Shown: one piece after another, positions 42,832 to 45,376 of the stretch
Position numbering within the stretch: position 1 is the first letter of the stretch
Layout of the letters: each line of letters starts with the position of its first letter
NCBI GenBank assembly: GCA_017504625.1
Contig: JAFVQU010000017.1
Span: 1-45,376, forward strand
Reading direction: 5' to 3'
Length of the DNA: 45,376 bases
Source: Clostridia bacterium
GTDB taxonomy: Bacteria; Bacillota; Clostridia; Oscillospirales; CAG-272
Translations under genes and position numbers: made by a program
Notes under the pieces: generated by a model
Told to the model about the DNA's origin: nothing
The model's input: only the letters and a program-made list of their open reading frames with translations
Database searches by the model: none

Positions 42832-42918
42832 GCCGGAATGATGGAATTGGCAGACGTGCTGGACTCAAAATCCAGTGGTAGCGATACCGTGCGGGTTCGA
42901 CCCCCGCTTCCGGCACCA
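42832..42918 (+). tRNA. tRNA-Leu (anticodon CAA)
   Basis: 87 nt with encoded CCA. Acceptor GCCGGAA pairs with TTCCGGC. The anticodon stem CTGGA/TCCAG carries loop CTCAAAA (CAA), a long variable arm follows as expected for Leu, and the T arm is GCGGG-TTCGACC-CCCGC. It reads UUG codons. Confidence 0.97.
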
Positions 42919-42957
42919 AAAAAGGAGATAACACCTTTCGGTGTTATCTCCTTTTTT
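42919..42957 (+). terminator. Terminator of tRNA-Leu
   Basis: GGAGATAACACC / GGTGTTATCTCC, a 12-bp perfect stem with a TTTC loop, then a T-run. It starts directly after the CCA. Confidence 0.92.
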
Positions 42958-43605: not shown

Positions 43606-43814
43606 AACGGATGTCCCCCTTTGCAGTTATGAGTTAATTATACCACTTTTTTCAAAAAAATGTAATTGGCAAAATAAACAAAATTACTATGTTTACAATT
43701 GTGACATATTCTTGCTTATTGTGTCAAAATACGACACACGGACATATATATGTACTGATAAGAGTTTTCACAACAGAATTCTTTTATCGCACATCCTAAA
43801 AAGGAGAGCAATAA
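43606..43814. promoter_or_regulatory. Intergenic control region between CarD and cotJA
   Basis: 209 bp, AT rich. On the minus strand a TATAAT near 43638 probably serves CarD. In the cotJ direction no sigma-A promoter is convincing. A CATATATAT tract near 43744 resembles a mother-cell (sigma-E type) -10 element but the matching -35 is poor. Mother-cell control of cotJ is known in Bacillus; here it is inference. Confidence 0.35.
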
Positions 43815-44195
43815 ATGAACAACGAAAGAAACGAGATGCCTGTATTTGACGGACATCACACAGGCGTCACTCAAGAGGGCGGAGACTCTCATATGGGATG
43901 CCCCTTCCCTTACGGTCAGATCCCCTTTGAGCCCAAGGGCGATCTTCGCATGACACCCAGGCTCGACAACACCTCTGCTCCCCGTCGCAGATGCAACGGT
44001 GAGCTTCGTGAAGGTAATCAAGGCTCAAGTTCAAAGCACGGCTGGGGACTTAGCGATCATCCTCTCGCTATGGTCTATTCTCCGTATCAGACTTGGAGAG
44101 AGCTTTACAATCACGAGCTTGCTCTTGAAAAGGGCACGCTCTTTTCCGAGCTTGATCTGCCCCTCGAGGCAATCAATTATAGAAAGGGGTGTTGA
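43815..44195 (+). CDS. cotJA: Spore coat associated protein CotJA
   Basis: 126 residues, longer than the Bacillus protein because of a polar N-terminal part (1-80; M/P/H rich, with CPFPYGQIPFEPKGD). The C-terminal stretch LAMVYSPYQTWRELYNHELALEKGTLFSELDLPLEA is the conserved CotJA region. It belongs to the spore coat complex with CotJB and the manganese-catalase-like CotJC. AAGGAGAG precedes the ATG. cotJB follows after 3 bp. Confidence 0.92.
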   Translation: MNNERNEMPVFDGHHTGVTQEGGDSHMGCPFPYGQIPFEPKGDLRMTPRLDNTSAPRRRCNGELREGNQGSSSKHGWGLSDHPLAMVYSPYQTWRELYNHELALEKGTLFSELDLPLEAINYRKGC

Positions 44196-44198
44196 TCA

Positions 44199-44540
44199 AT
44201 GGACAGAATGACAAGACAAAACGGATCATATCAGTGCAGAGGCGCAAAAGGTAATTCTTGCCCTCTTTGCAGAGGCAATAACAACGCAAGAAACTGTAAT
44301 TCTCTTATGAGAGAGCTTCAGAAGATAGATTTCGCACTTTACGAGACTATCCTTTACCTCGATGCATACCCCTACTGCAAGGAAGCGCTTGAATATTACC
44401 ACTCGCTCGTGCATCAAAGAGGACTTATCGTAGCAGAGCTTGAAGCAGGCGGAAACCCGATAACCACGTGCGGCAACGTCAGCCACAGCTCGTGGGATTG
44501 GATCTCTTCCCCTTGGCCGTGGGAAGCATCGGCTAACTGA
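44199..44540 (+). CDS. cotJB: Spore coat protein CotJB
   Basis: 113 residues. The central IDFALYETILYLDAYPYCKEALEYYHSLVHQR block is the conserved CotJB core. The N-terminus has a small cysteine cluster (CRGAKGNSCPLCRGNNNARNC), and the C-terminus ends in a tryptophan-rich SSWDWISSPWPWE that matches other clostridial copies. It is translated right after cotJA with AAGGGG upstream. It is followed, after 57 bp, by the start of cotJC. Confidence 0.92.
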   Translation: MDRMTRQNGSYQCRGAKGNSCPLCRGNNNARNCNSLMRELQKIDFALYETILYLDAYPYCKEALEYYHSLVHQRGLIVAELEAGGNPITTCGNVSHSSWDWISSPWPWEASAN

Positions 44541-44597
44541 TGATAAACCGTAAAATAACAACGCCGTCTTCTTTTATGCGGCAGAATGGAGATATTT

Positions 44598-44714
44598 ATG
44601 TGGGTATATGAAAAGAAGCTTCAATTCCCCGTTAAGATAAAAAACCCCGACCCCAGGGCTGCCTCAATAATAATAAGTCAGCTCGGTGGGCCGGGCGGCA
44701 AATTGCCATTATAA
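44598..44714 (+). pseudogene. cotJC: cotJC, 5' fragment cut off by prophage junction
   Basis: 38 codons then TAA. The N-terminus MWVYEKKLQFPVKIKNPDPR and the SQLGGPGG-K-L segment match the start of CotJC, a manganese-catalase-like spore coat protein of about 190 residues, up to the GGxxGEL motif. After about residue 36 the match stops and a foreign stop codon follows. GGAGAT precedes the ATG, so the start is intact. The last genes of a prophage-like element, oriented oppositely, end 4 bp beyond the stop. The missing 150 residues may lie at the far end of the element outside this window. Confidence 0.85.
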
Positions 44715-44716
44715 TG
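44690..44716. other. Probable attachment junction of prophage-like element in cotJC
   Basis: Host cotJC reading ends around GGTGGGCCGGGCGG (44685-44698), and non-host sequence begins between about 44698 and 44714. The exact core cannot be set from one junction. Integration in a GG-rich coding site instead of a tRNA would suit a large serine recombinase, but no recombinase is in view. Confidence 0.55.
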
Positions 44717-44718
44717 TT

Positions 44719-45012
44719 TTAACAAAAAAATCCGAAAAGGACACCAGCACCCGCAGAGCATACCGAGGCTATAACGTAGCCGACTATTGCCTGCCATCTT
44801 TTACCCGGTGCTTCCTCAAGTCGTGTGACCTTGCTGTCTATCTTCTCAATCTGAAGCGACATGTTGTGCTGGTTGTTTGCCAGCACCTTGAGGGACGACA
44901 CCATTTTGTTAAGTATCTCGGTATTCCTTTCAAGCTCGTCTATCCTTCGAGTATTTGATTTGCTTCGTTGCGTGTTCTCCGCAAGCGATTTGATTATTTC
45001 CTCGTTCGTCAT
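44719..45012 (-). CDS. XhlA-like phage protein (coiled coil plus C-terminal membrane anchor)
   Basis: 97 residues. A predicted coiled coil (about 1-70; TRRIDELERNTEILNKMVSSL, then IEKIDSKVTRLEE) is followed by one membrane segment at 73-97 (AIVGYVIASVCSAGAGVLFGF) ending at the C-terminus. This is the layout of XhlA/hemolysin-type proteins in prophage lysis modules, which work with a holin and an endolysin. Its start overlaps the previous gene by 4 bp (ATGA). It is the last gene before the cotJC junction; no endolysin gene fits in the remaining space. Confidence 0.75.
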   Translation of the reverse strand: MTNEEIIKSLAENTQRSKSNTRRIDELERNTEILNKMVSSLKVLANNQHNMSLQIEKIDSKVTRLEEAPGKRWQAIVGYVIASVCSAGAGVLFGFFC

Positions 45013-45176
45013 TCAGCTTTTTCTCCGTCCGCAAGCATTCTCTCATACTCGCTCTCGGTTATCTCGTAAAAATCGTATTCACTGACACCCTCGGCAAGAA
45101 AAATCTGCTTGCCGTATATCTCGCCGTTGGTGAGGATTTTTCCCTCATCGGCGTAAAGTATTTTTCTTGTTTTCAT
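45009..45176 (-). CDS. Small prophage protein of unknown function
   Basis: 55 residues from ATG 45176, which follows AAGGAGA. The sequence KTRKILYADEGKILTNGEIYGKQIFLAEGVSEYDFYEITESEYE is acidic with no membrane segment. Similar short proteins often lie between tail genes and the lysis module of clostridial prophages; function unknown. It overlaps the XhlA-like gene by 4 bp and starts 11 bp after the upstream gene's stop. Confidence 0.7.
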   Translation of the reverse strand: MKTRKILYADEGKILTNGEIYGKQIFLAEGVSEYDFYEITESEYERMLADGEKAE

Positions 45177-45187
45177 ATTCTTTCTCC

Positions 45188-45376
45188 TTATACAAGTGAT
45201 ATAGTCCAATTTGCGCGCGTGCCGATTAAAGCCAACCACTCGGCAGAAGTAGAACCGTTAGTTCCGGCTGTGTTTGTTGCAAATGCTTTATTGACCGCAT
45301 TCTTTGAAAGAGTTATCGACAGTCCGCTTGTTTCTGTAGACAAACAACTCACAATGTTCTCAATACTTGCCTTCGA
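45188..45376 (-). CDS. C-terminus of a phage tail-type protein (partial)
   Basis: 62 residues and a stop codon; the rest is beyond the window edge. The visible part (ASIENIVSCLSTETSGLSITLSKNAVNKAF, then STSAEWLALIGTRANWTISLV) resembles the repeated-fold endings of surface or tail-fibre-like proteins in gut clostridial prophages. This protein and the two small genes after it are on the minus strand and tightly spaced, as in a late phage operon. Confidence 0.6.
   Translation of the reverse strand, partial: SKASIENIVSCLSTETSGLSITLSKNAVNKAFATNTAGTNGSTSAEWLALIGTRANWTISLV

What the first reader, a model, noticed from the sequence alone, without database searches (positions are those of the whole stretch)
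44598..45376. Spore gene cotJC split by a prophage-like element: candidate developmental DNA rearrangement
cotJA, cotJB and the cotJC start are intact and in normal order, but cotJC breaks off inside its conserved GGxxGEL region, and three phage-type genes in the opposite orientation begin 4 bp later. Known precedents are sigK interrupted by the skin element and spsM by SPbeta in Bacillus, where excision in the mother cell restores a spore gene. A spore-coat gene as target and an undamaged upstream operon make the same logic plausible here. It could instead be simple inactivation.
Basis: partly seen in the sequence, partly recalled or inferred. Interest (0 to 1): 0.85.

Follow-up and report, generated by a model that had tools for sequence, protein, structure and literature searches.

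The report
Spore catalase gene split by mobile elements
A spore-coat catalase gene is cut into two to four pieces, at the same few spots, by inserted mobile DNA in many Clostridia, and the pieces stay well preserved, so the cell probably removes the inserts to rebuild the gene when it makes a spore.

Summary
The break in cotJC is real: codons 1-31 lie at window 44598-44690. The genome (G000) holds three collinear pieces (about residues 1-37, 28-69, 129-198) on three contigs; residues about 70-128 were not found. Each of the three break sites has a large serine recombinase (LSR) gene at one end. This recurs: in the window's family 41 of 144 genomes with a cotJC orthologue are cut at the same three sites, 32 with an LSR within 330 bp; there LSR clades follow sites. 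Of 30 further Clostridia picked from a class-wide search, 24 (15 other families) hold a cut copy, some complete genomes in three pieces. In a genus that is probably Ruminiclostridium, three species share a two-gene element (cellulase, LSR) in cotJC, apparently by descent, yet the cut-off part has dN/dS of 0-0.03. Precise excision rebuilding cotJC in the sporulating mother cell, as for sigK/skin, is the best explanation; excision was not observed. Against: in the window's genome the site-1 LSR is truncated to 282 aa, so this copy may be locked, and LSRs show no sporulation-type promoter pattern. Six searches listed no paper on cotJC as such a target. New variant of a known kind.

The parts
43686..43712 (+). 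candidate mother-cell type (sigma-K-like) promoter AC-N17-CATAnnnT in front of cotJA
   Evidence: pattern AC.{17}CATA in 14 of 41 cotJA upstreams vs 1.9 expected in shuffles, this window among the printed matches; found post hoc by spacing counts on the same 41; the sigma-K consensus itself is recalled
43815..44195 (+). cotJA, intact
   Evidence: PF11007
44199..44540 (+). cotJB, intact
   Evidence: PF12652
44598..44690 (+). 5' part of cotJC, codons 1-31 (frame runs on to a stop at 44712-44714 in element DNA)
   Evidence: PF05067 res 1-36; alignment
44685..44699 (+). attL core of site 1 (GGT GGG CCG GGC GGC), paired in register with GGA GGT CCT GAC GGC at the start of the C19 piece
   Evidence: the crossover at the shared GG is inferred
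44691..45376 (.). left end of element A (cut by the contig end)
44719..45012 (-). phage gene of the 'hemolysin' family phrog_937 (XhlA type, name recalled)
   Evidence: phrog_937, E 5.7e-16
45009..45239 (-). small element gene, no family hit
45188..45376 (-). C-terminal piece of an element gene cut by the contig end, perhaps a tail fibre (inferred from neighbours)
   Evidence: no PHROG hit

Best explanation
cotJC of Clostridia is a class-wide integration target for large-serine-recombinase elements (phage-like, island-like, and tiny two-gene elements). There are three main att sites, each in a stretch encoding a conserved motif of the manganese catalase (GGPDGE, VGTEELAH, LAAEQKAR), and a rarer, less certain fourth near VHxQRF. 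Shown: pieces, sites, recombinases, codon register, selection. Inferred: in the mother cell, which makes the coat and then dies, the recombinases (with directionality factors) cut the elements out precisely and rebuild the cotJC frame, while the spore chromosome keeps the elements. In the window's genome three elements (A at site 1, B at site 2, C at site 3) split the gene. A has a truncated recombinase and may no longer leave on its own.
For: (1) 41 of 144 orthologue-bearing genomes in the family sample are cut at sites 1-3 (my reading; 28 of the 41 with two or more pieces found, 13 with one); 39 of the same 41 carry sigG with E<=1e-100, so general fragmentation does not explain it. (2) 43 of 47 LSR frames found in the fetched stretches lie 3-327 bp from a cotJC break; 32 of the 41 genomes have one. 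A tree of 39 of them gives one clade for site 1 (8), one for site 3 (14), one for site 4 (2) and two separate clades for site 2 (4 and 11); 3 label changes vs shuffled mean 18.8. (3) Pieces meet on one contig and strand in 10 family genomes; for 17 junctions a join at a shared core restores the frame (16 by script, one by eye). (4) Complete one-contig genomes have the gene in three pieces and no intact copy at E<=0.05: G336, G238, G390, G351. (5) G336, G390 and G424 share a collinear 4.7-kb site-1 element at 88-94% nucleotide identity, made of a GH44-dockerin enzyme and an LSR. The detached 3' part has dN 0.014, 0.014 and 0 at dS 0.47, 0.43 and 0.16; the LSR dN/dS is 0.10-0.12. (6) Pooled dN/dS of detached 3' parts is 0.07 (n=32) vs 0.10 for intact genes (n=76), codons 140-198.
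Against: No excision product, attB read or attP circle was seen. LSR upstream regions show no enrichment of the sigma-K-like pattern found at cotJ (3 of 40 vs 3.1 expected), and no directionality factor was identified. In the window's genome the site-1 LSR is truncated; the LSR of G098 site 2 is 293 aa. The join test only tried joins in the same codon phase, some with a core of 2 nt, so it shows that a frame-restoring join exists, not that it is used. Most pairs behind the pooled dN/dS are near saturation (over codons 68-198 the synonymous distance is beyond correction) and the insertion age is unknown there. In the trio, LSR dS is 1.4-1.6 times that of the 3' part. Presence of elements varies within genera, so purifying selection could partly reflect time without the element. 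Outside the family the clade-site match is looser: site-1 LSRs of the G336 group are a further lineage, nearest to site-2 LSRs at about 120-130 bits, and the G370 site-1 LSR is nearest to a site-3 LSR.
Confidence: 0.78

Rival explanations
1. Simple inactivation: phages use cotJC as a tolerated landing site, the gene is dispensable, and the pieces are young remains that will decay.
For: Truncated site-1 LSR in G000; [quoted passage not shown] patchy presence within genera.
Against: Element apparently shared by descent in G336, G390 and G424 with dN/dS of 0-0.03 in the detached part; no stop after the att core in any of the 33 detached 3' parts compared; several hits in one gene without visible decay.
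Confidence: 0.15
2. Frequent loss: elements leave vegetative cells often, so selection sees the intact gene in element-free cells; no developmental timing.
For: Near-identical site-3 LSRs in two genera (G002 vs G103, 98% aa), so the elements move; yin in C. botulinum is found excised at all time points (PMC10747680, passages).
Against: Collinear two-gene element with a cellulosomal enzyme kept in three species.
Confidence: 0.15
3. The pieces are translated as separate polypeptides that assemble into a split CotJC.
For: Pieces stay open.
Against: Middle pieces between sites 1 and 2 are only about 30-40 codons and sit kilobases from the cotJ promoter.
Confidence: 0.03
4. Assembly artefact of metagenome bins.
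For: The window genome is a bin of 30 contigs; C19 carries the same 141 bp at both ends in opposite sense; five family genomes break at or near a contig end and were not counted.
Against: Same sites in single-contig genomes and in IMG/VR records; pieces on one contig in 10 family genomes.
Confidence: 0.03

Closest known systems
skin elements in sigK (Bacillus subtilis; Clostridioides difficile skinCd)
   Same: LSR element inside a mother-cell gene; in skinCd the LSR sits immediately upstream of the 3' half and is expressed constitutively (PMC5025042, abstract and passages), compatible with the LSRs here, whose upstreams lack a sporulation-type pattern.
   Different: Target is a coat enzyme, not a sigma factor; one gene is hit at up to three or four sites by different LSRs; excision not shown.
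SPbeta in spsM; vfbin in spoVFB; vrin in spoVR (Sato group)
   Same: Phage-related element in a mother-cell-expressed gene (PMC4191935, passages).
   Different: In the passages seen, one element per gene; here several per gene and class-wide recurrence.
gin in gerE (Bacillus cereus ATCC 10987)
   Same: Non-phage element with serine recombinases in a spore gene (PMC5595907, passages); like the small cotJC elements with ParB, AgrB or cellulase genes.
   Different: gin is 28.6 kb with three recombinases; the Ruminiclostridium-like site-1 element is 4.7 kb with two genes.
yin in yabG (Clostridium botulinum V73)
   Same: Prophage in a coat-related gene; excised and circular forms seen (PMC10747680, passages).
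   Different: Described there as unique to one strain; cut cotJC occurs in at least 16 families here.
Prophage next to a CotJC-like catalase gene in C. difficile R20291
   Same: A phage lies beside a gene homologous to CotJC (CDR20291_1465; PMC11222575, one passage).
   Different: The passage speaks of an adjacent gene lost in a deletion experiment, not of a split or rebuilt gene.
Convergent LSR targets (Durrant et al. 2022)
   Same: Many distantly related LSRs converge on one conserved gene site (PMC10083194, passages).
   Different: Targets named in the passages seen are a Mg chelatase/protease and a prolyl isomerase; 'spore' and 'catalase' have 0 occurrences in the main text.
Heterocyst excision elements of cyanobacteria with several elements in one gene (recalled)
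   Same: Several developmentally excised elements in one gene.
   Different: Different phylum and cell type; recalled, not tested here.

Membership tests
Sporulation gene-intervening element (skin type) | Element interrupts the coding frame of a mother-cell sporulation gene | tested here: met
   for the split; that cotJ is a mother-cell operon is recalled, with a sigma-K-like upstream pattern in 14 of 41 as support
Sporulation gene-intervening element (skin type) | Element encodes a site-specific (serine) recombinase close to an att site | tested here: met
   43 of 47 LSR frames within 327 bp of a break; in the window's own element A the LSR is truncated
Sporulation gene-intervening element (skin type) | Short shared core; joining halves restores the frame | tested here: met
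   a frame-restoring join at a core of 2-13 nt exists for 17 of 17 junctions (16, only in-phase joins tried; G098 site 2 by eye)
Sporulation gene-intervening element (skin type) | Excision in the mother cell rebuilds the gene | not testable with these tools
   no reads or cultures
Sporulation gene-intervening element (skin type) | Recombinase or directionality factor under sporulation control | tested here: inconclusive
   LSR upstreams 3 of 40 vs 3.1 expected, so no sign for the recombinase; directionality factors were not searched for systematically
Large serine recombinase (LSR) | Resolvase + Recombinase + zinc-ribbon domains, about 450-600 aa | tested here: met
   element C LSR, both G336 LSRs and the G037 site-2 LSR have all three Pfam domains; element B LSR (548 aa) has no zinc-ribbon hit at E<=0.001; element A LSR (282 aa) lacks it and is truncated
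Temperate phage (element A) | Complete set of virion, lysis and replication genes | tested here: inconclusive
   phrog_937 gene and a BppU-type gene seen; most of A may be missing or A may be small, since C7 and C19 ends border a repeated stretch

The most novel reading that the evidence does not exclude
cotJC is a class-wide developmental hub. Its metal-site motifs, among the most conserved stretches of the gene, serve as three to four separate attB sites for different recombinases, so that one spore gene is assembled in the dying mother cell by excising two to three independent elements, much like several introns removed at the DNA level. Elements fixed by descent carry vegetative genes (a cellulosomal GH44 enzyme; DegV and GH38 genes in other inserts), a germline/soma-like division of DNA in a bacterium.
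Probability: 0.55. Interest if true: 0.92.

Novelty: new variant of a known kind. Interest (0 to 1): 0.82.

Why it matters
Programmed DNA rearrangement in spore-formers is known from a handful of elements. Here one gene is cut in 41 of 144 orthologue-bearing genomes of a gut family and in at least 15 further families, with up to three elements at once. If the inserts leave during sporulation, cotJC would be a natural assay gene for developmental excision. It may also explain some missing CotJC annotations, would give many LSR/att pairs for DNA engineering, and makes the question 'does a resident element pay for its seat by leaving in the mother cell' testable in a laboratory cellulose degrader.

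Tried and rejected
A crude sigma-E matrix scored no better on cotJ upstreams than on shuffles and was dropped; the AC-N17-CATA pattern was then found by spacing counts on 41 upstream regions, so it is post hoc for cotJ. The missing residues of G000 were sought with one 76-aa query and not found. Left out of the 41: five genomes whose break is at or within about 30 bp of a contig end (G029, G035, G134, G153, G200), G078 (unclear), and five that end or diverge near the C-terminus (G049, G055, G095, G109, G188; possible site 4, an LSR beside it in G188 and also in G098:C31). Left out of the 144: nine of the 153 genomes with a hit, because the listed hits are the 33-37% catalase paralogue, a weak 25% hit (G154) or a 38-residue C-terminal stretch (G194); the second hit of G050 was not in the capped list. 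G027 (8% contamination) is counted as full length but has a second copy cut at site 3. The 30 genomes were picked by hand for partial or multiple hits. Six of them are not counted as cut: G324 (full length), G274 and G429 (contiguous with a frameshift at the sites), G401, G368 and G260 (one piece only). G425 and G261 have an intact copy besides a cut one and are counted. LSR frames under 270 aa (4 of 43) were left out of the tree, whose output warns that long branches meet. They are not proven.

Full report
Observation. The window is contig C7 of a 1.96-Mb, 97%-complete bin of 30 contigs. cotJA, cotJB and codons 1-31 of cotJC are in order at 43815-44690; the frame leaves the family at the GGPDGE motif and stops at 44714. 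The neighbouring gene matches a phage family, phrog_937.

Where the rest is. PF05067 and CotJC queries find three orthologous pieces in this genome: res 1-37 (C7), 28-69 (C19:2870-2995) and about 129-198 (C12:121071-121280). The C19 piece has one LSR 10 bp from its left edge and another 34 bp from its right edge; the C12 piece has a third LSR 23 bp before it. The gene is therefore cut at three sites, read as three elements A, B and C. Residues about 70-128 were not found; they would lie between B and C.

Not a local oddity. In the genus, 4 of 12 genomes are cut (G000, G001, G002, G009). In the family sample of 196 genomes, 153 have a hit and 144 an orthologue; 92 are full length and 52 partial (counted by hand). 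Of the 52, 41 are cut at site 1 (res about 31), site 2 (about 63) or site 3 (about 136); 28 of these show two or more pieces and 13 one piece. Five more end near the C-terminus (possible site 4), five break at or near a contig end and one is unclear. Seven of the 41 are cut at two or three sites (G000, G020, G037, G098, G116, G169, G172); in G000, G169 and G172 a middle piece was not found. Control: 39 of the 41 have sigG at E<=1e-100 (exceptions G042 and G077).

Recombinases. 43 of 47 LSR frames in the fetched stretches lie 3-327 bp from a break; 32 of the 41 genomes have one there. A maximum-likelihood tree of 39 groups them by site: site 1 one clade, site 3 one clade, site 4 one clade, site 2 two separate clades. 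Site-3 LSRs of G002 and G103 (different genera) are 98% identical, while their cotJC 5' parts are 78% identical, so the elements move. IMG/VR records carry such LSRs next to cotJC pieces in 14 of 103 loci. Outside the family the clade-site match is looser: the site-1 LSRs of the G336 group are a further lineage, and that of G370 is nearest to a site-3 LSR, while the site-2 LSRs of G351, G360, G383 and G247 belong with a family site-2 clade at 597-820 bits.

Wider. Of 216 class members with completeness at least 90%, 143 have a hit. I picked 30 with partial or multiple hits; 24 of them hold separated pieces meeting at these sites, in 15 families besides the window's; two (G425, G261) have an intact copy too. 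Seven of the 24 are single-contig genomes. G336, G238, G390 and G351 have the gene in three pieces and no intact copy at E<=0.05.

The decisive comparative case. In genus g102 (cohesin-rich, probably Ruminiclostridium), G336, G390 and G424 share a collinear 4.7-kb site-1 element, 88-94% identical, with two genes: a GH44-dockerin enzyme and an LSR. LSR dS is 0.64-0.66 (G336 vs the others) and 0.27 (G390/G424); for the 5' part (33 codons) it is 0.43-0.61 and 0.42, for the 3' part (137 codons) 0.43-0.47 and 0.16. The simplest reading is inheritance by descent, although LSR dS is 1.4-1.6 times that of the 3' part. In that time the cut-off 3' part took dN 0.014, 0.014 and 0, and the LSR dN 0.08, 0.08 and 0.03. 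A gene piece far from its promoter and start that evolves at dN/dS of 0-0.03 is best explained by regular rebuilding. The P arms beside the cores (GATTTCAYGTTTTT on the left, AAAAA-TGAAATC on the right) are inverted copies of each other, as in LSR attP sites (recalled). In the family at large, pooled dN/dS of detached parts (0.07, n=32) equals that of intact genes (0.10, n=76) within what such near-saturated data can tell.

Frame. For 17 junctions a join at a shared core of 2-13 nt restores the frame and the protein sequence (16 by script with only in-phase joins tried, G098 site 2 by eye). In register, the residue numbering runs on without loss. The sites sit on GGPDGE, GTEELAH and AAEQKAR, and the possible site 4 near VHYQRF. 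By alignment to Mn catalases these hold the residues that I recall as Mn ligands (E35, E66/H69, E148, H181 in Lactobacillus plantarum numbering). Strong conservation there is a simple reason for convergence (inferred).

Against. In the window's own genome the site-1 LSR ends at 282 aa against 475-512 in its clade. The two LSRs of G000 that do not border cotJC have site-3 LSRs at 27-34% identity as their six best hits. So element A may be stuck, and cotJC of this species may be on the way out. C19 starts and ends with the same 141 bp in opposite sense, which suggests that A and B share a stretch and that A may be small. LSR upstreams lack the sigma-K-like pattern that is enriched in front of cotJA; in skinCd the LSR is also constitutive and the directionality factor carries the timing (PMC5025042, abstract and passages), but I identified no such factor here.

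Literature. I ran nine searches; six were aimed at this subject. They listed papers on skin, spsM, gin and yin (vfbin and vrin in passages), and none that by title, abstract start or the passages I opened describes cotJC as a rebuilt target. The nearest is a passage on a C. difficile prophage beside a CotJC-like gene (PMC11222575). Listed papers with one or two mentions of cotJC were otherwise not opened, except PMC3533761. I saw passages of PMC4191935, PMC5595907, PMC10747680, PMC5025042, PMC11222575, PMC3533761, PMC10083194, PMC10701907 and PMC5748583. Subscription papers and preprints are mostly not held.

Verdict.

Noticed in passing
L372 (G429:C23:25160-25734) and L373 (G274:C16:63386-63965): Contiguous cotJC genes with a +1 frameshift exactly at site 1 and site 2 (G429) or site 2 (G274), each time an extra C before GGA. 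Healed sites, pseudogenes or programmed frameshifting cannot be told apart.
   Followed up: partly
L096 (G037:C58:1798-10394) and L097 (G098:C76:3859-8695): Site-2 inserts hold genes of chromosomal type: DegV and GH38 mannosidase in G037, HD and phosphoesterase genes in G098, and a similar RNA-polymerase-alpha-CTD-like frame in both.
   Followed up: partly
G019:C3 (54036 +, 162490 -) and G333:C1 (225392 -, 452989 +): The two halves of cotJC lie on opposite strands far apart, as after an inversion between element and chromosome.
   Followed up: no
L014/L022 (G002:C14:28142-28750) and L089 (G103:C23:192209-192781): Mn-catalase paralogues (32-33% identical to CotJC) lie just inside the left end of two site-3 elements.
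   Followed up: no
L100 (G188:C20:79612-80337) and L101 (G009:C24:13385-13480): Extra copies of the last 26-32 codons of cotJC, in G188 behind a small LSR insert, as if site-4 elements replace the 3' end.
   Followed up: partly
L353 (G336:C1:480300-497300): Both inserts of cotJC in the probable R. cellulolyticum carry cellulase-type genes (GH44-dockerin; GH5-CBM17/28-SLH).
   Followed up: partly
L095 (G073:C118:2844-5510): A 6.4-kb insert carries AgrB and GGDEF-HD genes beside the LSR.
   Followed up: no
L329, L330, L334 (IMG/VR records): A cotJC piece of res 63-136 lies beside a site-3-type LSR in opposite orientation, unlike the family genomes where that LSR always faced the 3' piece.
   Followed up: no
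window 42838-42920: Looks like a tRNA-Leu gene upstream of the cotJ region by eye; not run through ARAGORN.
   Followed up: no
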